Assembly: GCF_000092845.1 (NCBI RefSeq)
Contig: NC_014150.1
Span: 682,001-746,000 of the forward strand
Direction: 5' to 3'
Source: Brachyspira murdochii DSM 12563
Lineage (GTDB): Bacteria > Spirochaetota > Brachyspiria > Brachyspirales > Brachyspiraceae
DNA length: 64,000 bases
Positions 5,073 to 30,025 of the stretch are shown here, piece by piece. Within the stretch, counting starts at the first letter, position 1. The number at the start of each line of letters is the position of its first letter. The position numbers were made by a program, and so were the translations under genes. A model generated the notes under the pieces. It saw only the letters and a list, made by a program, of their open reading frames with translations, made no database searches and was not told where the DNA came from.

Positions 5073-6602
5073 TTATCTGGCAACCTCAACTGCCCTAGTC
5101 TCTCTAATAACTGTAACCCTTATTATACCAGGATATTTTAACTCATCTTCTATACGTTTAGCAATATCTCTGGCAATCTGTTTAGCCTGAACATCATCTA
5201 CCATATCACTTTTAGCCATTACTCTAAGCTCTCTTCCAGCCTGTATAGCAAATGATTTTTCAACACCCTCTATACTGTCAGCTATTTTTTCAAGATTGTC
5301 CAAACGTTTTATATAACTTTCAAAAGATTCTCTTCTAGCTCCGGGTCTCGCCGCACTAATAGCATCAGCTGCTTTTACTATAACAGCTTCAACAGTCTGC
5401 GTATCAACATCATTATGATGTGCCCTTATAGCATTAACTACCTCTTCTTTTTCTCCGCATCTTTTAGCCAAATCAGCACCGCTCATAGCATGAGAACCTT
5501 CGCCTTCAGTTTCTATAGCTTTACCTATATCATGAAGAAATGCACTTCTTTTAGCCAAATCAACATTTGCCCCTATTTCAGCTGCTATCATAGCGGCAAT
5601 ATTTGCAACCTCTTTACTGTGAAGAAGCATATTCTGTCCGTAACTAGTTCTGTACTGAAGTCTTCCCATATGCCTTATTAATTCATGATGCATAGTTGTA
5701 AGATTTAAATCTGTAATGGCATTTTCTCCAGCCTCCATTATAGAATCTTCAACTTCTCTTCTAGTTCTTTCAACAACCTCTTCTATTCTGGCAGGGTGTA
5801 TTCTTCCATCTAATATAAGTTTTTCTAATGAAACTTTAGCAATATGCTTTCTTACAGGATCAAAACATGATATAACAACAGCTTCCGGAGTATCATCTAT
5901 AATAATATCAACACCAGTAAGTGTTTCAAGCATTCTTATATTTCTTCCCTCTCTTCCTATAATTCTTCCTTTCATCTCTTCGCTAGGCAAAGATACAGAA
6001 GTTACAGAAGTTTCCTGAGCTACCTCGCTTGAAAGACGCTGTATGGTTTGAACTATTATCTCTCTTGCTTTTCTTTCTCCTGTCTCTATAGCATTTTTTT
6101 CTATATTGTCTACTATTTTAGTGGCAGATTTTTTGGCATCTTCCTCTATATCTTTTATCAAATTGGTTTTAGCTTCTTCTCTTGTAAGACCTGCTATTTT
6201 CTCCAATTCTTTTTCAGCTTCTTCTATCACAGAAGAGAGTCTTTCTTCCTGTTCTTTAATTTTTTTCATTTTATTCTCAATATTATGTTCTTTATTTTCC
6301 AAATACTGAGATTTTTTATCAAGATTGGCCTCTCGTTGTAGTACTCTATTTTCTAATTTCTGAATCTCTGCTTTTCTATCTCTATTTTCATTTTCTAATC
6401 TACTACGTTCTTTTTGTATTTCAGAATTAGCTTCAGAAAGTATAGTCTTTCTTTCGTTTTCTGCTTGTTCTCTTGCACTTTGAAGCAGCTTGTGTGTTAT
6501 TATTTCCGTAGAGTTAAGCTTTATTTTCGCTATAACAAAACGGGTTATATATCCAAAAACAAACGCAACTACAACGAAGGTGATTATTAAAGGTATGTTC
6601 AT
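5073..6602 (-). CDS. rny: Ribonuclease Y
   Basis: A 509-residue RNase Y, close to the usual 510-520. Domains in order: an N-terminal membrane anchor (residues 4-24), a long coiled coil (about 30-200) rich in Glu, Lys and Arg, a KH domain with GRIIGREGRNIR, an HD phosphohydrolase domain with LHDIGKA as the metal site, and the C-terminal region ending in YPGIIRVTVIRETRAVEVAR. It is a membrane-bound endoribonuclease that starts mRNA decay. The start follows a GAGGTG ribosome site. It is the first gene of the rny-ymdB-membrane protein transcript. Confidence 0.97.
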   Translation of the reverse strand: MNIPLIITFVVVAFVFGYITRFVIAKIKLNSTEIITHKLLQSAREQAENERKTILSEANSEIQKERSRLENENRDRKAEIQKLENRVLQREANLDKKSQYLENKEHNIENKMKKIKEQEERLSSVIEEAEKELEKIAGLTREEAKTNLIKDIEEDAKKSATKIVDNIEKNAIETGERKAREIIVQTIQRLSSEVAQETSVTSVSLPSEEMKGRIIGREGRNIRMLETLTGVDIIIDDTPEAVVISCFDPVRKHIAKVSLEKLILDGRIHPARIEEVVERTRREVEDSIMEAGENAITDLNLTTMHHELIRHMGRLQYRTSYGQNMLLHSKEVANIAAMIAAEIGANVDLAKRSAFLHDIGKAIETEGEGSHAMSGADLAKRCGEKEEVVNAIRAHHNDVDTQTVEAVIVKAADAISAARPGARRESFESYIKRLDNLEKIADSIEGVEKSFAIQAGRELRVMAKSDMVDDVQAKQIARDIAKRIEDELKYPGIIRVTVIRETRAVEVAR

Positions 6603-6652
6603 ATTTCACCTCGTCATTATTTTTTGTATTTAATACATTTTTTACACCAATA

Positions 6653-6681
6653 TTATTAACATGATTTTTATATAAAGTCAA
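6653..6681 (-). promoter_or_regulatory. Predicted sigma-70 promoter of rny
   Basis: Read on the minus strand: TTGACT (6681-6676), a 17-base spacer, and TAATAA (6658-6653). It lies about 50 bases before the rny start codon. Confidence 0.5.
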
Positions 6682-6723
6682 TAATATTATTTGATTGTAA
6701 AAGTATATAAATAAATTAATGCA

Positions 6724-7263
6724 TTAATATTTTTGGAACATCTTTCCAGAACCGCCGCAAGTTTCACAGGTTTCAGGTGCTTTATCTCTGTATATATTGC
6801 CGCAGCTAGGACAGAGATAAAAAGTTACATCTGCATCCTTATTTAAAAAGTTATCTATAATATCTTGGAATAATTTAGCATGTTCTGTTTCTACTTTTCC
6901 CAATGAATTGACTGTTTCACTTACTAATTTATTTTTTTGTTCTACAGCTACCTGAGCTAACTGAGGATAAAGTATAGTAGATTCATATACTTCGCCTTTT
7001 ATACCGGCTTCCAAATTTTCTCTGTCGCTTGCAGGAGCTACAGGATTAAGTTCCGGAACAAATTTACTCATATCCAATCCGCTTCTTAAAGCTAATTTTC
7101 TCATTTTTTCAGCATGTATTTTTTCAGCCAAAGATGTTGTTGAAAATACTTTCTGAACAGCTTTATTGCTTGATGCTTTTCCAAATGAACTATATCTATT
7201 TGCAGCATTAGATTCACCTTGAAATATTGAATATAAAACTTCTTCTAATGTTTTTGCAGCCAT
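6724..7263 (-). CDS. Rubrerythrin
   Basis: A 179-residue rubrerythrin. The ferritin-like four-helix domain carries the diiron ligand pattern (GESNAANRY near residue 16, AEKIHAEKM, EVYESTILYP and VETEHAKLF). The C-terminal rubredoxin-like domain has two Cys pairs, CPSCG and CETCG, for one iron. Rubrerythrin reduces hydrogen peroxide in anaerobes using electrons from reduced rubredoxin or NADH-linked reductases, in the cytoplasm. A perfect GGAGG ribosome site lies 9 bases before the ATG, implying strong translation. The gene is monocistronic and divergent from the cytidylate-kinase-like gene. Confidence 0.95.
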   Translation of the reverse strand: MAAKTLEEVLYSIFQGESNAANRYSSFGKASSNKAVQKVFSTTSLAEKIHAEKMRKLALRSGLDMSKFVPELNPVAPASDRENLEAGIKGEVYESTILYPQLAQVAVEQKNKLVSETVNSLGKVETEHAKLFQDIIDNFLNKDADVTFYLCPSCGNIYRDKAPETCETCGGSGKMFQKY

Positions 7264-7320
7264 ATTTATTTTCCTCCAATTGTATGTATATATTTATTAA
7301 TAAAAAATAATTCTTATTTA

Positions 7321-7339
7321 TGAAATTAATTTCATTATA
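7321..7339 (-). promoter_or_regulatory. Palindrome next to a -10 box upstream of rubrerythrin
   Basis: TGAAATTAATTTCA (7321-7334) is a perfect 14-base palindrome 58 bases upstream of the rubrerythrin start. Read on the minus strand, a TATAAT (7339-7334) abuts it, so the palindrome would lie near the transcription start. This is a plausible repressor site. No convincing -35 box is seen at the right distance. Confidence 0.3.
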
Positions 7340-7482
7340 TAATATCAATTAGTAAAAAAAAATCAAACTTTTTTTTTAAAAATATATTAAAAATCACAAT
7401 ATATAATGAATAAATTTTATTTTATAATATAATACTTCAGATAAAACATATAAATCAGATAAAATATATTAAAAAGGCAAAT

Positions 7483-8097
7483 ATGAATAACATAATAACT
7501 ATAAGCAGACAATATGGAAGCGGAGGAAGAAATATAGGAGAAATGATCTCTAAAAAACTCAATTTTAATTTTTATGATAAAGAATTAATAGAAATAGTGG
7601 CTAAAAGAACAGGCATTAACAAGCAGTATCTCGAATCAAAAGAAGAAAAATTTACTAATGACAACCTTTTTTTTAGTGCATTTCATAAAGAAATTTTTTC
7701 GAGTCCGTTCGCCTCAAAAACAAGAGATTCAACTCTTGATAAAATATTTGAAATACAAAGAGAAGTGATAATAAATATAGCAAATAAAGGAAACTGCGTA
7801 ATTATTGGAAGATGTGCAAGTTTTATACTTAAAGACTGTCATAAATGTTTCAATATCTTTGTTCATGCTCCAAATGAAAGAAGAATACAGAGAATAACTG
7901 ATGAATATGGAATAAAAATGGAAAATGCAGAAACTCAGCTTAAAAATACTGATAAATATAGGGCAAATTATTATAAATACTATACTGGAGCTGATTGGGG
8001 AGATATGACTAATTATAACCTCACCATAGACAGCGGATACTTCAATGATGAAGATATATGCTCTATAATAATAAATGCTGTAAAAAAAACTATATAA
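7483..8097 (+). CDS. Cytidylate kinase-like family protein
   Basis: A 204-residue P-loop protein. The N-terminus ITISRQYGSGGRNIGEMISKK is the signature of the cytidylate kinase-like family (PF13189), where GSGGR replaces the classical Walker A of Cmk. Further matches are YDKELIEIVAKRTG, VIIGRCASFIL and the lid region APNERRIQRI. Family members are predicted nucleoside-monophosphate kinases, but few have been tested. The true CMP kinase Cmk is a different, longer subgroup. It is followed closely by an unknown gene on the same strand. Confidence 0.85.
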   Translation: MNNIITISRQYGSGGRNIGEMISKKLNFNFYDKELIEIVAKRTGINKQYLESKEEKFTNDNLFFSAFHKEIFSSPFASKTRDSTLDKIFEIQREVIINIANKGNCVIIGRCASFILKDCHKCFNIFVHAPNERRIQRITDEYGIKMENAETQLKNTDKYRANYYKYYTGADWGDMTNYNLTIDSGYFNDEDICSIIINAVKKTI

Positions 8098-8173
8098 AAA
8101 CTTGAAAATTGATAATATATTACTATATTTAATTAATAGCTATAATATGATATTTAGAGAAAAGGATTTATTT

Positions 8174-8674
8174 ATGAAGAATAAAGATATTAAAGATTTT
8201 TATGAAAATGACTACTTCTCGTACGAATCTGATTGTGATTTATGGAATGATGAAAAAATATCATTATTAATAGATTTTGGAGAAGAAGCTGATAAATCAA
8301 AAATGCTTATGAAATATTTACATAAAATTAATGAAATATTAAAATGGATTGATGAGCATAAAAAAGATGTTTCAGATTTTCTTATAAACAAACAGTGTTT
8401 GGCATTAGCTGAAGAATGGGTTATTACAGGCGAACAAATAGATGAAAATGCTTATAAAAATCAGTCTGGAGAAATTATAAATATACCTATTAAAGATGAA
8501 GATTTCTTTGATGCTATGTATATAGATACCATATTAATAGATTTTGATGAAGATGAAACAAGGCCTGATACTACACTGCATATACTATTTGAACCTGATT
8601 ATTTTAAACATCACTCATTGATAGTTTATATAGACGGTGAAAGAAAGATAGAATACGGTGATATAGCCGGATAA
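8174..8674 (+). CDS. Uncharacterised acidic cytoplasmic protein
   Basis: The frame is open from a TTG at 8102, but ATG at 8174 has an AAAGGA ribosome site 8 bases before it, giving 166 residues. The protein is acidic and has no signal peptide or membrane segment. The C-terminal half has the pattern IDTILIDFDEDE-LHILFEPDYFKHHSLIVYIDG, recalling small DUF2004/DUF2262-type proteins often found near toxin-immunity loci, but I cannot assign it firmly. It lies 76 bases after the cytidylate-kinase-like gene. Confidence 0.6.
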   Translation: MKNKDIKDFYENDYFSYESDCDLWNDEKISLLIDFGEEADKSKMLMKYLHKINEILKWIDEHKKDVSDFLINKQCLALAEEWVITGEQIDENAYKNQSGEIINIPIKDEDFFDAMYIDTILIDFDEDETRPDTTLHILFEPDYFKHHSLIVYIDGERKIEYGDIAG

Positions 8675-8760
8675 TACAAATAATAAATATATCTAATTAA
8701 ATACATGTATTTTTCAATCTAAACTTCAAATCATAATCGGCATATTACAGGAGAATATAG

Positions 8761-9381
8761 TTGAAAGACTACATTAAAAATTTAGAAAAAGAATTTTCAA
8801 AAATAACCAACGGATTTAAACAAATAGAAAAAAAGGCATTATATGATTTAAAATCTAATAATAATTCTTATATTAAAGAATTAGCATACACAGCTTATAA
8901 ATCAGATTTATATCAAGTAAGAATGTATTCAGTGTTTTTATTTGGTTATTTATCTGAAAAAAAAGAAATTCTTAATTTTATGAAAGATGTAGTTTCTAAA
9001 GATAATAATTGGAGAGTTCAGGAAATATTGGCAAAGTCTTTTGATGAACACTGTAAAATGTTAGGATATGAAAAATCTACATCAATTATTGATGAATGGT
9101 TAAATAATAGTAATCCTAATACAAGGCGTGCTGTAACTGAAGGTTTAAGAATATGGACAAATAAACCATATTTCAAAGAAAATCCTAGTGAAGCAATTAA
9201 AAGATTATCAAATCTAAAACATGATAATAGTGAATATGTTAGAAAATCTGCAGGTAATGCTTTAAGAGATATAAGCAAAAAATATCCAAAATTAATTGAA
9301 GAAGAATTAAATAGCTGGAATTTAGAAATAAAAGAAATAAAACAAGTTTATAAATTAGCAAACAAATTTATAAAACAATAA
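8761..9381 (+). CDS. HEAT-repeat protein, DNA alkylation repair (AlkD)-like
   Basis: A 206-residue, all-helical protein. It starts with TTG, chosen because CAGGAGA lies 5 bases upstream. The helical repeats (YQVRMYSVFLFGYLS, NWRVQEILAKSFDEHC, NPNTRRAVTEGLRIW, SEYVRKSAGNALRDISKKYP) match HEAT repeats. The WRVQE and NPNTRRAVTEGLR spacing is that of the AlkD/DNA alkylation repair family, which removes bulky or cationic alkylated bases. Catalytic Trp/Asp residues cannot be placed with certainty, so it may be a non-enzymatic HEAT protein. Confidence 0.7.
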   Translation: MKDYIKNLEKEFSKITNGFKQIEKKALYDLKSNNNSYIKELAYTAYKSDLYQVRMYSVFLFGYLSEKKEILNFMKDVVSKDNNWRVQEILAKSFDEHCKMLGYEKSTSIIDEWLNNSNPNTRRAVTEGLRIWTNKPYFKENPSEAIKRLSNLKHDNSEYVRKSAGNALRDISKKYPKLIEEELNSWNLEIKEIKQVYKLANKFIKQ

Positions 9382-9915
9382 AGTTTATAATTTTTATTAT
9401 CAATTTTTTTGCTGCGGATTAGCCAAAGCTGATGTCGGCATGATTAAGAAAGACACAGATATTAAAAACAAAATATAACTCTATTTTTAACAAACTATAT
9501 TTATATTAGGTATATAATATAAGATTATAAAAAATATAGTTTAATCAGCATATTCCTGAAAAAGCATTATTTACTCTTATTAGATATCAGTAAAACTTAA
9601 ATGTGAGAAAGAATGCTGTAAGAGTATGCATCTGATTACCTATTATTGTACAAAACAAATAATTTATTTTATATTTAAAATATATTTATAAGTTTATAAA
9701 AATATTTTATATTATTAATAAACTATAATAGCATTTACAAATAAATAAAACCTTACAAAATATAACTGATTAGTTATATACAAAAATAAAAAATTATAAT
9801 TGACTTTTTATTTTATATTTATACAATTCATCTGTCAAAGATTATTAAAAAATTTAAAAAAGAACAAAAATTGTCAGAATATTACAATTAAAAAATAAAC
9901 AAGAGAGAGGAATCT
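9382..9915. other. 534-base intergenic region
   Basis: No gene is supported here. A short open stretch (9407-9478) would read GLAKADVGMIKKDTDIKNKI before a stop and may be a decayed coding remnant. The rest is AT-rich with scattered stops. Its right end holds the promoter of the NagD-like gene. Confidence 0.5.
9800..9827 (+). promoter_or_regulatory. Predicted sigma-70 promoter of the NagD-like gene
   Basis: TTGACT (9800-9805), 16-base spacer, TACAAT (9822-9827). The implied leader before the start codon at 9916 is about 80 bases. Confidence 0.5.
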
Positions 9916-10686
9916 ATGATTAGTATAATATCAGATATGGACGGAGTTATATACAGAGGAAATAATTTAATAGACGGAGCAGAAGATTTTATAAGAATGT
10001 TATTATATAAAAATGTGCCTTTTTTATTTTTAACAAATAATGCAGAGCAAACTCCAAGAGATTTAAAAAGAAAATTAGAATCATTGGGGGTAAACGGACT
10101 TGAAGAAAAACATTTCTTTACAGCAGCACAGGCAACGGCGATATTTTTACAAAGACAGCTTGAAAACGGAACTGCATATGTTATAGGTACAGGCGGACTT
10201 GTAAGCGAACTTTATAATGTAGGATATAGTATCAATGATGTTAATCCAGACTATGTAGTTGTTGGTAAAACAAGTGCTTTTAATTTTGATATGCTTCAGA
10301 AGGCTGTTCATCTTATAAATAAAGGAGCAAGATTTATAGGATGCAATCCAGATATAGTAGACCCAGCACCAAATGGTGAATTAATACCTGCTGTAGGACC
10401 TATACTTGCCGCTATAGAAACTGCTACAGGAAAAAAGCCTTATATTGTAGGAAAGCCCAACCCCATTATGATGTCTATTGCCAAAAACCAGATTAATGCT
10501 CATAGTGAAAATACACTTATGGTTGGCGACAGAATGGATACTGATATACTAGGAGGACTTGGAGCCGGAATGAAAACCGCTCTTGTACTTTCTGGTGTTA
10601 CAAACAGAGAAATGATAGAAGGATTTCCTTACAGACCAAATTATATATTTAATTCTGTAGCTGATATAAATATAGACAAATTTTAA
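9916..10686 (+). CDS. HAD-IIA family sugar/nucleotide phosphatase (NagD-like)
   Basis: A 256-residue HAD phosphatase of subfamily IIA. Motif I is SDMDGVIYRG (nucleophile D7, D9), motif II LTNNAEQTP, motif III lysine in GKPNP, and motif IV GDRMDTDILGG. The C2B cap lies between residues about 80 and 180. E. coli NagD dephosphorylates UMP and GMP, and others act on p-nitrophenyl phosphate or sugar phosphates; the substrate here is unknown. A GAGAGAGG site precedes the ATG. It is monocistronic, with a promoter upstream and a terminator downstream. Confidence 0.9.
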   Translation: MISIISDMDGVIYRGNNLIDGAEDFIRMLLYKNVPFLFLTNNAEQTPRDLKRKLESLGVNGLEEKHFFTAAQATAIFLQRQLENGTAYVIGTGGLVSELYNVGYSINDVNPDYVVVGKTSAFNFDMLQKAVHLINKGARFIGCNPDIVDPAPNGELIPAVGPILAAIETATGKKPYIVGKPNPIMMSIAKNQINAHSENTLMVGDRMDTDILGGLGAGMKTALVLSGVTNREMIEGFPYRPNYIFNSVADINIDKF

Positions 10687-22829: not shown

Positions 22830-24777
22830 ATGTTTAAAAAATTTAGTCTCCAAATAAAAATTAGCTTATCAATATTAATACCTTTGCTAATTATGCTTAT
22901 TATTTCAAACACTATTAATGTTATCTATGTAAAAGAAGCCAGTAAAAAACTATCATACAAAATTTTGGAGGAAAGTTCTAAGGGAGAAACAGCTACATTA
23001 CAATCATTTATGGAAGATGATCTTTATTACACAATCGGACTTGGAAAAGTTATAGAAGGTTTTTACAGCGACGGAATGACAAACAGAAATTTTTATGAAA
23101 CAACAGTATACAATTTCTTCACAAAACTTTCTCAAAGAATTAGTTCTATACATATAGCATTTGAGCCTAATACTTTAGATAACGATTCTAATTATATTAA
23201 TTCTCTTAAATACTCAAAAGCAAATGGACAATTCAATTACTCTGTTTCAAGATCAGTCGGAACTAGCATACTTGAATCATATTCAGATGCCTCAATATTT
23301 CAGAATGATTATTATGTAAATGCTTTAAAGACAGCAGAAATATATATTACAGATATATAAATCTTCTTCTGGAAATATTTTATATACTTGGGCAATACCT
23401 ATCAAAAACAGCAGAAATAAAGTTATTGGGGTCATAGGATTAGATGTATTGGCTAATTCTCTTAATAATCTGCTTTCTAAAATAAAAACTTTTGAAGGCA
23501 CAACTGTTACATTATTTGATAATGCCGGAAATATAGTATATGACAGTGATAATACAAATTATATATATAAATCTCTTGACAGCATATATCCATATTATAA
23601 AGAACATGATGTTTATAATAAGATAAAAAGCGGAGAAAATTTAATATTTGAAAATTTCAGCGGCACATTAAAAAAATATTATACATACTCTTTCACGCCA
23701 TTAGAGATGTCTAAAGGCAGATATTGGGGATTTAAATTAACTGCTCCTAATGATGTTATATTAAGAGACAGCAATACAATAAGAAATATTATGATTATTA
23801 TATCAGCAGTTATAGTAGTTATAAGTGCTGTAATAGTACCTTTTATCATCAAAAGAAAAGTAACAAGTATGATAGCCGGTCTTTCTAAAGATATGTACAA
23901 AATATCAAGCGGAGACATATCATTCCATATAGGACATAAGTTTTTAAATATGAATGATGAATGGGGAGACATAGCTAAAAGCTGCGAAAATATTTTGAAT
24001 AATTTAAACAAAGTAGTTTCAACAGTAAAATATTCAGCAGAACAAGTTTCTACTGCCGCAAATGAAGTACTGACTGGAAACAATGACTTATCTGACAGAA
24101 CAGAATCCCAAGCATCTAGTTTGGAAGAGACAGCCGCTTCTATGAATGAAATGGCAAGTGCAATAAAGGAGTCAGCAGAAGGCGTTGCTCAAAGTACAAG
24201 TATGGTAACTGACGCAAAAGAATATATAAATAAAGCCGGCAGTATTATAGAAGATAGCGTAAATAAAATGAATGATGTACATGAAGCTAGTACTAAAATA
24301 ATGGACATCACCAAACTCATAGAAAATATTGCATTTCAAACTAATATACTTGCTCTTAATGCTTCAGTGGAGGCAGCAAGAGCAGGAGATAATGGAAGAG
24401 GTTTTGCTGTAGTAGCCAGCGAAATAAGAAACCTAGCACAAAATACTCAGGAATCTGTAAAAAGTATTACTTCATTAATAACAGACAGCAATAATAAAAT
24501 AAAATTAGCTGCAAATAGTGTACAAGAATCGCAGGAAATATTCGGAGAAATATTAGAAAAAATGGATAATACTTCCATTGTAATGGCTAAAATAAATACA
24601 GCAGCTCAGGAACAGGAAAAAGGAATAGATCAGGTTAATATTGCAATAAGCAATATGGATAGTGCTGTACAAAAGAATGCTGCTTTGGTATCTGAAGCAG
24701 CTTCAGCTTCAGAATCATTACTTAGTGAAGCTAATGAATTAATAAAAACTATAGAATATTTTAAATTAAAAAATTAG
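22830..24777 (+). pseudogene. Methyl-accepting chemotaxis protein, frameshifted in the sensor domain
   Basis: Two frames together encode one receptor. The first (22830-23360, 176 residues) has the N-terminal membrane helix and half of a dCache sensor, stopping at ...EIYITDI. The second continues without loss from about 23356 (YKSSSGNILYTWAIPI) to 24777. It holds the rest of the sensor, a second membrane helix, HAMP, and a complete signalling hairpin with the tip EVIAFQ-type motif IAFQTNILALNASVEAARAGDNGRGFAVVASEIRNLAQ split here as IAFQTNILALNASVEAARAG. The shift is in GATATATAAATC; adding one AT pair restores the frame, giving about 649 residues. It could be a pseudogene, a phase-variable gene or a sequencing error. 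Confidence 0.85.
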
Positions 24778-25165
24778 TAAAAATAAAAAGTTCATATTAT
24801 GATTTAAGAAAGTGAGTTTGCAAGTATAGATTAGTTTGGTTATATTGATTGTACTTTTAATAATGATGGGCGTATACAATATAATAAATATTGATTAAGC
24901 AAAATACTATCTTAAATAAAATTTCACAGGAGTTTGCCAAAGAATGAACAAGGTAATAAATTAAGTTTAGTTGTAAAATAATACTTATATCAAATAACAT
25001 AGATTAATAAATATAAATTAGAAAATACGGAATTTCTAAAAGAAAATAATATGAATAGGATATTTCAAATTAAGAAATTAAATAACAAATTTTATATTCA
25101 AATTTTTCTTATTATATATAATGGTTTATTTTATAAGAAAAATTCTAAATTAAGAGGCGTTTTTT
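24778..25165. other. 388-base gap between two chemoreceptor genes
   Basis: No gene is supported. A short open stretch near 24828-24897 would read FGYIDCTFNNDGRIQYNKY and may be coding debris. Otherwise AT-rich, with an AGAGG ribosome site for the next gene at its right end. Confidence 0.4.
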
Positions 25166-26560
25166 ATGAATGATAAGGTAAGCTTAAATATAAAAATAAG
25201 TTTATTCATTATAATACCTATTATAGTAATAATATTGATATTTGGTATTATAAATACAATACATACATACAATATGACAAAAGAAATGTCATTATTCACA
25301 ATATTTCAGATGTCTCAAAAAGAAGTATTTGAAATAGAATCTATAATCAATGTGGAAGTAAACTATCTTAATAATATAAAATATTCTGTAGAAAATCTAT
25401 ATAATTATAATATCAGAAATAGAGAAATATATGAGGATTTAATGAAAAGATTTGCAAATGATATGAGTACTAATGCTGTTTCTATATCTTTAATATTTTT
25501 AACTAATGCTCTTGACAATGACAGTATGTATATTAACAATCCTCTTTACAAAAATATTGACGGAAGATTAGGAATATATTTACTCAAAGATACAAATAAT
25601 AATATAGACAGAATTAATATGGAAGAAGCAGATTTGCAATACAGCTATTTAGATACTACTATAAAAAGCAAAGAACCTCATATTACACCTTTAAACTATT
25701 ATCCAGTACAGGGAAAATACAGACCTATGTATACATACTCAATACCAATATTTTCCAAAGACAATAAAATAGTTGCTGTATCTTCTTTAAATTTATCTTT
25801 AGATAATATAATATTCTATGAAGATACAAATGGATTTACAATTTCATTATTTAATGAAAAAGGGAATATTATTTACTGTACTACAGATAAATACCGTATT
25901 GGGGAAAATATTACTAATTCATCTGATATATACGGATATAATAATTTATTAGAAACTATATGTTCAAATAACACTGTATTTAAAGAATCATATAATAAAA
26001 AAACATCTAGTAAATATTTCCATATATTCAGACCAATACATATGTTTGATGATGTGTATTGGGCAATAGAATTAGCCGTATCTGCAAAAGCAGAATTTTT
26101 CAGTAATTATAAAATTATAATAATGATGTGGATTATAATATCGTCAATCATTATTATAATAGTCATTATAGTACCGTCTATTATTAATAAGAGAGTATTA
26201 TCAGTAATGAATGATTTAAATGATAATATTACCAAAATAAAAGATGGAGATATATCTTGGAGTGTTTCTGAAGATTATTTGAAATTAAATGATGAGATAG
26301 GGGATATGAGCAGAGGAATTAACAATACGGTTGAATATTTAAATGATTTGGTTACTGCGGTAAAAGGAAAAGTAGATAAAATTTCTGAAAATTCAAATGA
26401 TATATCAGATTTTGTAGATAAAATTAACGATAAAGACAACAAAATAATAAAAAATCAAAACTACCAATTTGTAAGTCAGGTTACTGAAACTTCAAAATCT
26501 CTTATAGAAGAATCAAAAGAACTTCAAAAAATTATAGAATATTTTAAACTTAGAGAATAA
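25166..26560 (+). CDS. Chemoreceptor-like protein lacking the signalling hairpin
   Basis: A 464-residue paralogue of the preceding receptor. It keeps the N-terminal membrane helix (about 9-31), a dCache sensor (about 35-310), the second membrane helix (MWIIISSIIIIIVIIVPSII) and a HAMP domain. After HAMP it has only about 70 residues and ends in LIEESKELQKIIEYFKLRE, which matches the extreme C-terminus of the intact receptor type (LLSEANELIKTIEYFKLKN). The roughly 220 residues between, including the conserved CheA/CheW-contacting tip and methylation helices, are absent. This looks like an in-frame internal deletion. It could still bind ligand or dimerise with other receptors, but it should not signal to CheA by itself. 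Confidence 0.85.
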   Translation: MNDKVSLNIKISLFIIIPIIVIILIFGIINTIHTYNMTKEMSLFTIFQMSQKEVFEIESIINVEVNYLNNIKYSVENLYNYNIRNREIYEDLMKRFANDMSTNAVSISLIFLTNALDNDSMYINNPLYKNIDGRLGIYLLKDTNNNIDRINMEEADLQYSYLDTTIKSKEPHITPLNYYPVQGKYRPMYTYSIPIFSKDNKIVAVSSLNLSLDNIIFYEDTNGFTISLFNEKGNIIYCTTDKYRIGENITNSSDIYGYNNLLETICSNNTVFKESYNKKTSSKYFHIFRPIHMFDDVYWAIELAVSAKAEFFSNYKIIIMMWIIISSIIIIIVIIVPSIINKRVLSVMNDLNDNITKIKDGDISWSVSEDYLKLNDEIGDMSRGINNTVEYLNDLVTAVKGKVDKISENSNDISDFVDKINDKDNKIIKNQNYQFVSQVTETSKSLIEESKELQKIIEYFKLRE

Positions 26561-26641
26561 ATTGTACAAAAATATTATTTGACATTAAACTATATAGAAT
26601 ATATACTAAAAACAATATTAAAATATAACTTGGGTAGTAAA

Positions 26642-28276
26642 ATGTTTAGTAAAAATTACCATATTTTATTTATAGGATTGATATCTCTAATTGTTAATAT
26701 ATCCTGTTCAAAAATAGAAGAAACTGTATCTCAAAATCAATCTTCAAAATATTTTGCTTTACAAATAAATATAGGTTCAGAACCATATACTATAGACCCA
26801 AGTTTTAATGTAACATCAGATACTTTGATATATTTAAGACATATATTTGAAGGCTTAGTTACAAAAGATAAAGACGGAAAAATAATACCTGCTGTAGCAA
26901 AAAGCTGGACTATAAGCAGCGACGGATTAGTATATACTTTTAATCTCAGAGACAATGCGTATTGGAGTGATGGAAAAGGGGTAGTAGCTCAGGACTTTGT
27001 ATATTCATTCAGAAGATTATTTGACACAAATACTAAAAGCAAATACGCTTATCAGTATAATATGATAAAAAATGCTAAAGATATTAATATTGGAAAAATA
27101 GAGCCTAAATATCTTGGTGTAGAAGCTATTGATGATTATACTTTGAAAATTATGTTAGAAATGCCATTAACATATTTTCTTGAAATTTTAGCCTACCCTA
27201 CTTTTTATCCATTAAGAGAAGATATAATTAAAGCATATGGAGAAAAATGGACTGACAGCCCGCAAACTTTAATAGGAAACGGACCTTTTAAAGTTGTTGA
27301 AAGAAAATTTAATGAATATATTATTATGGAAAAAAATGAATTATACTGGAATACAAAAGAAGTAATACCAAGCAGATTAGAGTTCATACTTAGAAATGAC
27401 AATGAATATTCTCTAAGCTCTGTAAAAAGCGGACTTCTTCATTTTTCTAGGAACTTCCCAAGAGAATATATTTCTTCATTAGAAAAAGCGGGATACATAA
27501 AAAATGTTCCAAGAATATCTTCATATTTCTATTTTATAAATACAACAAACAAAACATTATCAGATTCTAATGTAAGAAAAGCATTATCTCTTGCCATAGA
27601 TAGAAATTACATAGTTGAAAAAATCACAAAAAGCGGAGAAAGACCAGCAGCCGCTTTAGTACCTTACGGAGTACCAGGATTTTTTGGAGATTTCAGAGAA
27701 AACGGCGGAGACTATATTGATATTACAAGAAATAATTATGAAAATAATATCAAAGAAGCAAAAAAACTTATGATGCTTGCAGGATATCCTAATGGAAATA
27801 ATTTTCCTACATTAACTTTTAAAACAACTCATGGAGTGCATATATATATATTTGAGGCTGTTCAGAAAATGTGGAAAGAAAATCTTGGTATTGATGTAGT
27901 TATCGAAGAGTTGGAATGGTCTGATTTACTGAAACAGAGATTTGATAAAAATATAGATATTGCAAGCGGAGGCTGGAATGGAGATTTCAATGATCCTATC
28001 AACTTTTTATCGATATTTTTAAGCTCATCTCCTAATAATAACAGCGTTTACAGTAATTCAAGATATGATGATCTTATAAAAACAGCAAGTTTAATAGGAG
28101 ATGTCTCTCATAGAATGATGACTATGCATAAAGCCGAAGAAATATTAATATCAGATATGGCAATAATACCTATTTATTTTTATAATGAACCTCTTTTAGT
28201 TTCGCCTAAACTAAAGGGAGTAGAATATGATCCTATGGGACAATATAATTTCTCTAAAGCATATTTATTAGAATAA
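26642..28276 (+). CDS. oppA: Oligopeptide ABC transporter substrate-binding lipoprotein (OppA, copy 1)
   Basis: The frame is open from 26579, but ATG 26642 begins the signal peptide with lipobox IVNISC, giving 544 residues. It is a family 5 solute-binding protein: GSEPYTIDPSFNVTSDT, the KSWTISSDGLVYTFNLRDNAYWSDGK signature region split around residues 85-115, and ALSLAIDRNYIVE. It captures peptides outside the inner membrane for an OppBCDF importer. No permease or ATPase genes are nearby, so it probably shares a transporter coded elsewhere. It is closely similar to the next gene, a tandem duplication. Confidence 0.93.
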   Translation: MFSKNYHILFIGLISLIVNISCSKIEETVSQNQSSKYFALQINIGSEPYTIDPSFNVTSDTLIYLRHIFEGLVTKDKDGKIIPAVAKSWTISSDGLVYTFNLRDNAYWSDGKGVVAQDFVYSFRRLFDTNTKSKYAYQYNMIKNAKDINIGKIEPKYLGVEAIDDYTLKIMLEMPLTYFLEILAYPTFYPLREDIIKAYGEKWTDSPQTLIGNGPFKVVERKFNEYIIMEKNELYWNTKEVIPSRLEFILRNDNEYSLSSVKSGLLHFSRNFPREYISSLEKAGYIKNVPRISSYFYFINTTNKTLSDSNVRKALSLAIDRNYIVEKITKSGERPAAALVPYGVPGFFGDFRENGGDYIDITRNNYENNIKEAKKLMMLAGYPNGNNFPTLTFKTTHGVHIYIFEAVQKMWKENLGIDVVIEELEWSDLLKQRFDKNIDIASGGWNGDFNDPINFLSIFLSSSPNNNSVYSNSRYDDLIKTASLIGDVSHRMMTMHKAEEILISDMAIIPIYFYNEPLLVSPKLKGVEYDPMGQYNFSKAYLLE

Positions 28277-28358
28277 TAAATATTTACTATATAAACAATA
28301 CTATCAAAAAAATAATACATTATAAAGTATTTTTTAATAAAAATTGAGGAGAACAAAA

Positions 28359-29963
28359 ATGAAAAAAATAAATGTTTTATTTATTTTTATAATTTTTTTA
28401 TTTGTATTATCTTGTTCAAATACAAATAAAAAAGACGAAGGAATATCAATATACATAAATACTGGTCCGGAACCAAATACTATAGACCCTAGTATTAATG
28501 TTACTTCAGATGCTGTATTTTATTTAATTCATACATTTGAAGGATTAGTTGAAAAGGATATGAACGGAAAATTATCTCCTGCCGTAGCAGAAAGCTGGGA
28601 AATAAGCGATGACGGACTTACATATACTTTTAAACTAAGAACAAATGCTAAATGGACTGATGGAAAGCCTGTTACTGCAAATGATTTTGTATATTCTTGG
28701 CAAAGAGTTGTAGACCCTGCTACTGGAAGTCAATACGGATATCAGCATGAACCTGTAAAAAATGCTAAAGCAATTACGGCAGGTGAAATGCCAAAAGAAA
28801 ATTTGGGTATAAAAGCAATAGATGATTATACTTTAGAAGTAACTTTAGAAGCTCCTACTGCTTATTTTTTAGAGCTTTTAAGTTTCCCTACTTTTTATCC
28901 ATTAAGAAAAGACATAATAGAACAATATGGAGATAAGTGGACATTAAATGCTGATACATATATAGGAAACGGTGCTTTTAAACTTATTGAAAGAAACAGA
29001 GATGAAAGTCTTGTAATGGTAAAAAATACCAATTATTGGAATATAGAAAATATAGTACCTGATAAAATTACATTTGTACTTATGGAAAATGAAACAGCTT
29101 CTGTAGCTGGAGTTAAGGCTGGTACTTTGCATTTTGCAAGATCATTCCCTAGACAGGATATACAAACTCTTCAAAAAGAAGGACTTATAGTAATAAAACC
29201 TAGAATATCATCATACTACTATTGTCTAAACTTAACTAATGATGTATTAAAAGATGTAAGAGTAAGAAGAGCATTATCTCTTGCTATAGACAGAAACTAC
29301 ATAGTAGAACAAGTAACAATGGGCGGAGAAAAACCTGCAGGTGCTTTAGTTCCTTATGGAATATCTGACTATGATGGAGATTTCAGAGAAAACGGCGGAG
29401 AATATATTGATATAACTAAAGAAGGATATGCTAAAAATGTAGAAGAGGCTAAAAGATTAATGGCGGAAGCAGGATATCCTAATGGAGAAGGTTTTCCTGT
29501 TATGGAGTTTAAAGCGGATCCAGGAATACATGTAAAAATATTTGAAGCTGTTCAGCAAATGTGGAAAGAAAATTTAGGTATTGATGTTACTTTAACACAA
29601 GAAGAATGGGCTGTATTTCTACAAACTAGATATGACAGAAATATCACAATGGCTAGAGGAGGCTGGAATGGGGATTTTGATGATCCTGTAAACTTTATGA
29701 CTTTATGTATAAGTTATTCTCCAAACAATTACAGTGTTTATAGTAATAAAGCCTATGATGATATGATTAATCAGGTTATGCTTTCAGGAGACCAAAAGTT
29801 CAGAATGGAAACTATGCATAAAGCAGAAGATTTATTAATGAAAGAAGAAGCCATAATACCTATATATTATTATACAGAACCTCTTTTAGTATCGCCTAAA
29901 CTTAAAGATGTTTATTATGATTCATTAGGTTTTCATAGATTTCATAGATGTTATTTAGAATAG
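28359..29963 (+). CDS. oppA: Oligopeptide ABC transporter substrate-binding lipoprotein (OppA, copy 2)
   Basis: 534 residues from ATG 28359, preceded by GAGGAG; the signal peptide ends at FVLSC. Family 5 solute-binding signatures are clear: GPEPNTIDPSINVTSDA, AVAESWEISDDGLTYTFKLR, WTDGKPVTANDFVYSWQRV and ALSLAIDRNYIVEQV. Residues lining the peptide pocket differ from copy 1 in several segments, so ligand range may differ. It is a stand-alone binding protein and ends in a strong bidirectional terminator. Confidence 0.95.
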   Translation: MKKINVLFIFIIFLFVLSCSNTNKKDEGISIYINTGPEPNTIDPSINVTSDAVFYLIHTFEGLVEKDMNGKLSPAVAESWEISDDGLTYTFKLRTNAKWTDGKPVTANDFVYSWQRVVDPATGSQYGYQHEPVKNAKAITAGEMPKENLGIKAIDDYTLEVTLEAPTAYFLELLSFPTFYPLRKDIIEQYGDKWTLNADTYIGNGAFKLIERNRDESLVMVKNTNYWNIENIVPDKITFVLMENETASVAGVKAGTLHFARSFPRQDIQTLQKEGLIVIKPRISSYYYCLNLTNDVLKDVRVRRALSLAIDRNYIVEQVTMGGEKPAGALVPYGISDYDGDFRENGGEYIDITKEGYAKNVEEAKRLMAEAGYPNGEGFPVMEFKADPGIHVKIFEAVQQMWKENLGIDVTLTQEEWAVFLQTRYDRNITMARGGWNGDFDDPVNFMTLCISYSPNNYSVYSNKAYDDMINQVMLSGDQKFRMETMHKAEDLLMKEEAIIPIYYYTEPLLVSPKLKDVYYDSLGFHRFHRCYLE

Positions 29964-29986
29964 AATAAAAAGTTATCATAAAAATA

Positions 29987-30025
29987 AAGGCTTGAACTTA
30001 AATAATAAAGTTCAAGCCTTTTTTA
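29987..30025. terminator. Strong bidirectional terminator between oppA copy 2 and fruA
   Basis: AAGGCTTGAACTT (29987-29999) and AAGTTCAAGCCTT (30008-30020) are perfect 13-base inverted repeats. A T tract follows on the plus strand and an AAAATAAA tract precedes on it, giving a T-rich tail on the minus strand too. It serves both convergent genes. Confidence 0.9.

What the first reader, a model, noticed from the sequence alone, without database searches (positions are those of the whole stretch)
25166..26560. Receptor with sensor, membrane and HAMP parts but no signalling hairpin
The C-terminal 19 residues match those of an intact chemoreceptor, so the gene seems to have lost about 220 codons in frame from the middle of the signalling domain. 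Such a protein could act as a ligand sink, a dominant-negative subunit or a scaffold, or have a new role. Its retention without stops argues against simple decay.
Basis: partly seen in the sequence, partly recalled or inferred. Interest (0 to 1): 0.5.

Follow-up and report, generated by a model that had tools for sequence, protein, structure and literature searches.

The report
Conserved chemoreceptor lacking its signalling hairpin
In one group of gut spirochaetes (Brachyspira), a chemoreceptor gene lost in frame the part that talks to the chemotaxis kinase, yet it has been kept, copied and protected by selection in many species, which suggests that it has an accessory role rather than being a decaying gene.

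Summary
Window 25166-26560 encodes an intact 464-residue protein with TM1, a dCache sensor, TM2, a HAMP-like segment, a short stub and the last ~36 residues of a chemoreceptor, but no MCP signalling domain. Against neighbouring 650-residue receptors, 201 residues are replaced by a 17-residue linker: net loss 186, not 220. It is not a private deletion. Fifteen of 26 Brachyspira genomes carry a full-length SHORT1 of this architecture (others 68-90% identical to the window's), and eight carry a second, hairpin-less paralogue (SHORT2). All 23 form one branch (100/100), so one old loss is the simplest reading. They are under purifying selection (NG86 dN/dS 0.12-0.38), weaker than in neighbouring receptors. 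The locus is syntenic: MATE, 0-3 full receptors, SHORT1, sometimes SHORT2, then OppA-like lipoproteins; Opp1 lies downstream in 17 of 17 genomes. In SHORT2 the HAMP has decayed, yet the last 19 residues are the most constrained region (dN/dS 0.11). The protein lacks the usual CheA/CheW tip and methylation helices. I favour an accessory pseudo-receptor, either a mixed-dimer modulator of full receptors or a docking protein for the Opp lipoproteins. Function is inferred, and these data do not separate the two.

The parts
25166..26560 (+). SHORT1: hairpin-less receptor, 464 aa plus stop
   Evidence: ORF; orthologues; no MCPsignal
25166..25273 (+). N-terminal tail and TM1 (residues 1-36), the part of the N-terminal half most like the full receptors
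   Evidence: alignment, regional identity, long helix 7-80 in model
25274..26083 (+). dCache sensor (residues 37-306)
   Evidence: AlphaFold2, Foldseek to PDB chemoreceptor sensor domains, weak PF02743 match
26084..26197 (+). TM2 with flanks (residues 307-344)
   Evidence: alignment, helix 307-359
26198..26329 (+). HAMP-like segment (residues 345-388)
   Evidence: alignment to receptor HAMP; NCBIfam MCP matches
26330..26398 (+). stub of the N-side signalling helix (residues 389-411)
   Evidence: alignment; helix 377-420 (low confidence)
26399..26449 (+). 17-residue variable linker that stands in place of 201 receptor residues
26450..26557 (+). C-side helix (residues 429-464); the last 19 residues (26501-26557) are the conserved tail (E..L...I.YF.L)
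26642..28276 (+). Opp1: OppA-like substrate-binding protein, probably a lipoprotein, directly downstream of the SHORT gene(s) in 17 of 17 genomes with a SHORT locus (likely start ATG at 26642; the listed ORF starts with TTG at 26579)
28344..29963 (+). Opp2: second OppA-like substrate-binding protein
22830..24777 (+). upstream full receptor, frameshifted by loss of 2 nt in a short AT run near 23352
24800..25082 (+). remnant of a second full receptor that directly precedes SHORT1 in the nearest relative (ends approximate)

Best explanation
SHORT1 is a conserved pseudo-chemoreceptor. A dCache receptor in a tandem array lost, in frame, the four-helix-bundle hairpin from the first methylation helix through the tip to the second methylation helix (SHOWN by alignment; that it happened once is the simplest reading of the tree). 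What is left (dCache sensor, two TM helices, HAMP-like segment, the base of the bundle with its C-terminal tail) can still bind a ligand or a ligand-loaded lipoprotein and probably still dimerise (INFERRED). It lacks the parts that in MCPs bind CheA/CheW and are methylated (SHOWN as absence of the domain; the role of those parts is established knowledge). It therefore most likely works as an accessory subunit at the membrane: it senses the ligand or binding protein of its operon and tunes full receptors through mixed dimers or side-by-side packing at the base of the bundle, without output of its own (INFERRED).
For: Fifteen full-length SHORT1 genes in 26 genus genomes, the 14 others 68-90% identical to the window protein, all without stops. 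Eight of the 26 genomes carry an intact hairpin-less SHORT2. All 23 short proteins are one side of a branch against 18 full receptors, 100/100 (tree on sensor and TM columns only). Purifying selection: NG86 dN/dS 0.12, 0.16, 0.15, 0.38, 0.21 for five SHORT1 pairs and 0.20-0.30 for four SHORT2 pairs. About 5% of neutral substitutions would make a stop, that is about 29 stops expected at 0.4 substitutions per site, and none are seen in the 15. The tail is the most constrained region in SHORT2 (ratio 0.11 against 0.45 for HAMP) and the lowest in SHORT1 (0.20 against 0.43 for the middle of the stub). E449, L453, I457, Y459, F460, L462 are invariant in all 41 short and full proteins, and on an antiparallel register residues 392-400 face 456-464. 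A short hairpin is modelled (H377-420/H430-463). A full receptor lies 13-80 nt upstream in 13 of 17 genomes, and Opp1 follows the SHORT gene(s) in 17 of 17.
Against: Mixed dimers are not shown. SHORT genes persist without an intact neighbouring receptor in the window genome, G003 and G033, so the direct neighbour is not needed. In G012 the Opp pair persists with neither SHORT nor receptor, so Opp1/Opp2 do not need SHORT. dN/dS is about twice that of the adjacent receptors in the three genome pairs where both were measured. SHORT2 is broken in G014 and G037, and nine of 26 genomes have no SHORT at the threshold. The hairpin model has pLDDT under 50 over residues 404-437, and for SHORT2 over 353-426. 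Shared operon and single-locus inheritance mean that synteny is weak evidence for working together.
Confidence: 0.45

Rival explanations
1. SHORT works with the Opp lipoproteins independently of chemotaxis: a membrane docking or holding protein, or a ligand buffer for Opp1/Opp2, that uses mainly its dCache and TM parts.
For: Opp1 follows the SHORT gene(s) in 17 of 17 genomes with a SHORT locus, while an intact full receptor directly upstream is found in 13 of 17. SHORT2 in G003 persists with Opp1 and Opp2 and no local receptor. SHORT2 has lost a recognisable HAMP.
Against: The cytoplasmic tail is the most constrained part of SHORT2, which a purely periplasmic role does not explain. Opp1/Opp2 survive without SHORT in G012. 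OppA-like proteins elsewhere in these genomes are common.
Confidence: 0.3
2. Slow decay: a receptor disabled long ago that survives as an array member under weak selection, with constraint mainly from folding in the membrane without harm.
For: Higher dN/dS than neighbouring receptors; SHORT2 copies broken in G014 and G037; decayed HAMP in SHORT2; the window's own upstream receptors are decaying.
Against: No stop or frameshift in 15 SHORT1 genes where dozens of stops would be expected under neutrality; dN/dS far below 1; a tail more constrained than the sensor in SHORT2; retention across species and duplication.
Confidence: 0.12
3. Dominant-negative receptor (the narrow form of the best explanation): SHORT makes non-signalling mixed dimers that lower the gain of a receptor team, a built-in damper.
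For: Bundle-base, TM1 and HAMP residues shared with full receptors; operon-like spacing of 13-80 nt behind a full receptor in 13 of 17 genomes.
Against: The sensors are only about 23% identical to those of the adjacent receptors; it persists where the adjacent receptor is lost. No interaction data.
Confidence: 0.25
4. Assembly or sequencing artefact, or a private deletion in this strain.
For: None beyond the damaged neighbours in the window genome.
Against: The same architecture in 15 of 26 genomes.
Confidence: 0.01

Closest known systems
dCache methyl-accepting chemotaxis proteins (PF02743/PF22673 sensor, HAMP, PF00015 signalling domain)
   Same: Same sensor fold, two TM helices, HAMP-like segment, base of the bundle and C-terminal tail; same tandem array; ancestry clear by sequence
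   Different: The whole signalling hairpin with tip and methylation helices is missing
Receptor signalling domains that differ by symmetric heptad indels (Alexander and Zhulin classification, recalled, not read here)
   Same: A loss that removes facing parts of both helices of the hairpin, roughly centred on the tip (109 residues on one side, 93 on the other)
   Different: Those retain tip and methylation sites; here everything distal is gone and the register is not exactly balanced
Treponema denticola CheWS, a non-canonical chemotaxis-array protein of spirochaetes (PMC10653840, abstract and outline seen)
   Same: An accessory sensor of a spirochaete chemotaxis system
   Different: A CheW-based SAM sensor; no relation in sequence was tested or is claimed

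Membership tests
Methyl-accepting chemotaxis protein (MCP) | MCPsignal domain (PF00015) with CheA/CheW-binding tip | tested here: not met
   No match in the window protein; 18 of 41 aligned members match, equal to the number of full receptors; 201 residues including the tip absent
Methyl-accepting chemotaxis protein (MCP) | methylation helices | tested here: not met
   Alignment: the columns from the first methylation helix to just before the last 36 residues are empty (place of the methylation helices recalled)
Methyl-accepting chemotaxis protein (MCP) | extracytoplasmic sensor between two TM helices | tested here: met
   Model, Foldseek, alignment
Methyl-accepting chemotaxis protein (MCP) | HAMP domain | tested here: inconclusive
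   Aligned with receptor HAMP in SHORT1 and covered by NCBIfam MCP matches, but PF00672 does not ring in the window protein (2 of 41 members); decayed in SHORT2
dCache_1 sensor proteins | double PAS-like fold after a long N-terminal helix | tested here: met
   PF02743 only below its cut-off (18.2 bits); PF22673 rings in 26 and PF02743 in 21 of 41 aligned members
dCache_1 sensor proteins | universal amino-acid-binding motif (recalled: R-x-W-Y and partners) | not tested
   By eye no R-x-W-Y is seen in the window protein; the motif is from memory and no ligand claim is made
Dominant-negative receptor subunit | forms mixed dimers with a full receptor and lowers its output | not testable with these tools
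   Needs cross-linking or two-hybrid and behaviour assays

The most novel reading that the evidence does not exclude
Brachyspira has evolved a lasting class of kinase-uncoupled chemoreceptor subunits. One old loss of the signalling hairpin made a regulatory co-receptor; it was duplicated, and the second copy went further, shedding a recognisable HAMP while keeping under strong selection a 19-residue cytoplasmic tail, which would be an interaction surface for full receptors or another partner.
Probability: 0.3. Interest if true: 0.72.

Novelty: new variant of a known kind. Interest (0 to 1): 0.5.

Why it matters
Chemoreceptors are usually taken as sensor plus kinase-control hairpin. A family kept across species without the hairpin gives a natural test of what the rest of a receptor can do: whether sensor, TM and bundle base alone can regulate neighbouring receptors, and what the conserved C-terminal tail is for. 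Published MCP counts for Brachyspira may include such proteins, which could not signal in the usual way; I did not check whether they do.

Tried and rejected
Private deletion or artefact: rejected by 15 of 26 genomes with the same architecture. Exact heptad-balanced deletion: not supported, since 109 and 93 residues are lost on the two sides of the tip and linker length varies. Insertion of a mobile element in the G035 copy: I first took large overlapping ORFs in that locus for an insert, then saw that the stretch reads N; the state of that copy is undetermined. Hairpin-less relatives outside Brachyspira: none in 296 genomes of the phylum at E 1e-15; the matches outside the genus are in frames of 656-757 aa. 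That search scored at most 5 candidates per genome, so weak relatives may be missed. Literature: searches (open-licence PMC text only) showed no paper on such a family; subscription papers are not covered. Promoter scan: 39 sites against 42.6 expected by shuffling, so uninformative. SHORT2 structure model: cytoplasmic part too uncertain to use.

Full report
What is there. The ORF at 25166-26560 is intact, 464 aa. It carries TM1, a dCache sensor, TM2, a HAMP-like segment, a helical stub and a receptor C-terminus, and no MCPsignal. The genome (3,241,804 bp, one contig) is of the genus Brachyspira, judging by the named relatives; that it is B. murdochii is my recollection of the genome size and comes from no call.

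Exact anatomy. Against 18 full receptors from the same loci the window protein lacks 201 residues; 17 linker residues stand in their place. Counted from the tip residue of the hairpin (the Asp/Glu of ARAG[DE]QG; its place at the tip is recalled from Tsr), 109 residues are lost on the N side and 93 on the C side. So the break points lie roughly, not exactly, opposite each other in an antiparallel hairpin, and the remaining helices could close into a short hairpin, as AlphaFold2 draws it (helices 377-420 and 430-463), but with pLDDT under 50 for residues 404-437. The membrane-distal half of the sensor is well modelled (blocks mostly above 85), the rest of it less so (blocks 64-94), and the whole matches solved ligand-binding domains of chemoreceptors (best 9heh, E 1.1e-16; 6pzj of Leptospira, E 4.5e-14).

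Not private. Among 26 genomes of the genus, 17 have a match at E 1e-90. Fifteen, the window genome included, have a full-length SHORT1 (the 14 others 68-90% identical to the window protein); G003 has only a SHORT2; G035 has a partial match whose state cannot be judged because part of the locus reads N. Eight genomes have an intact second short gene, SHORT2 (G003, G004, G005, G009, G011, G013, G032, G033), and in two more it is broken (G014, G037). Nine genomes have no SHORT at this threshold. In 296 genomes of the phylum nothing hairpin-less was found outside the genus.

One origin. On a tree of sensor and TM columns only, so without the trait itself, the 23 short proteins are one side of a branch against 18 full receptors, 100/100. 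The tree is unrooted and warns of long branches, and the 18 receptors were a choice of those in the fetched loci, so one loss is the simplest reading, not a proof. The G011 second copy sits apart from the other SHORT2 proteins and its cytoplasmic part resembles SHORT1, and the N-terminus of SHORT1 in G033 resembles SHORT2; gene conversion is my inference.

Selection. NG86 dN/dS for five SHORT1 pairs is 0.12, 0.16, 0.15, 0.38 and 0.21, for four SHORT2 pairs 0.20, 0.20, 0.23 and 0.30, and for three pairs of the adjacent full receptor 0.07, 0.07 and 0.11. So SHORT is under clear purifying selection, weaker than a working receptor. YN00 values are lower but failed for many short regions. About 5% of neutral substitutions in this AT-rich gene would create a stop. 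By region (mean over pairs) SHORT1 gives sensor 0.23, HAMP 0.24, stub 0.42-0.43, tail 0.20; SHORT2 gives sensor 0.24, HAMP 0.45, stub 0.41-0.42, tail 0.11. The last 19 residues are thus kept even where HAMP has decayed; in SHORT2 6 of the 19 codon columns vary only silently, so this is not mere recent identity. In single pairs the tail is noisy (one SHORT1 pair, G013-G005, gives 1.17). Pairs with undefined or very large dS were left out of the regional means (96-105 of 105 pairs used for SHORT1, 20-21 of 21 for SHORT2), and the G011 second copy was left out of both groups. Six of the tail residues are invariant in the full receptors too, which fits packing at the base of the bundle.

Surroundings. 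The order is MATE transporter, full receptors, SHORT1, sometimes SHORT2, Opp1, Opp2, fructose PTS. Opp1 follows in 17 of 17 genomes with a SHORT locus (split in two frames in G004). Opp2 follows as well, except in G017 where none was listed; in G037 the contig ends inside it. A full receptor lies 13-80 nt upstream of SHORT1 in 13 of 17. The exceptions are informative: in the window genome the directly preceding receptor is a remnant and the next one is frameshifted by a 2-nt loss; G033 has a 191-aa fragment; G003 has none; G035 cannot be judged. SHORT is intact in the first three. In G012 the locus has MATE, Opp1 and Opp2 but neither receptor nor SHORT. So SHORT does not need its neighbour receptor, and the Opp pair does not need SHORT. 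All this is one locus in one lineage and weak as evidence for function.

Most likely working. The protein lacks what is needed to contact CheA/CheW or to be methylated in the usual way. What is conserved (sensor, TM1, base of the bundle, tail) is what is needed to sense and to pack with receptor-like partners. I favour an accessory subunit that tunes full receptors, with a docking or holding role for the Opp lipoproteins as the main rival. None of this is shown experimentally.

Known or not. Passages of the Brachyspira genome papers (PMC2650404, PMC2897892) and of the exposed-proteome paper (PMC4955376) count or list MCPs, but the passages I saw say nothing of hairpin-less receptors. [quoted passage not shown] Text searches found no description of such a family, within open-licence papers only.

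Noticed in passing
window 22830-24777: Full dCache receptor broken by loss of 2 nt in a short AT run near 23352; the copy in B. innocens (L031:6365-8314) is intact.
   Followed up: partly
window 24800-25082: Remnant of a second full receptor, mostly deleted in this genome, intact in L031:8336-10288.
   Followed up: partly
L060 (G012), 5257-10036: MATE, Opp1 and Opp2 kept with no receptor and no SHORT between them.
   Followed up: yes
L034:5868-7128 and L051:10759-12077: SHORT2 copies broken into two or three frames.
   Followed up: no
L037:11587-12987 and L054:9951-11354: Apparent gene conversion between SHORT1 and SHORT2: cytoplasmic part in G011, first residues in G033.
   Followed up: no
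L050:7167-8806: Opp1 of G004 is split in two frames.
   Followed up: no
G000:C1:1062677-1064268 and G000:C1:476269-477713 (outside the window): Two more dCache receptors of this genome seem split into a sensor frame and a signalling frame.
   Followed up: no
window 29986-30021: Terminator-like stem of 14 pairs with T runs on both strands between the convergent Opp2 and fructose PTS genes.
   Followed up: no
L031:13475-13703: No Opp2 listed between Opp1 and the fructose PTS gene in B. innocens, unlike the other loci.
   Followed up: no
L055 (G035): Part of the locus that covers the SHORT copy reads N, so its state cannot be told.
   Followed up: partly
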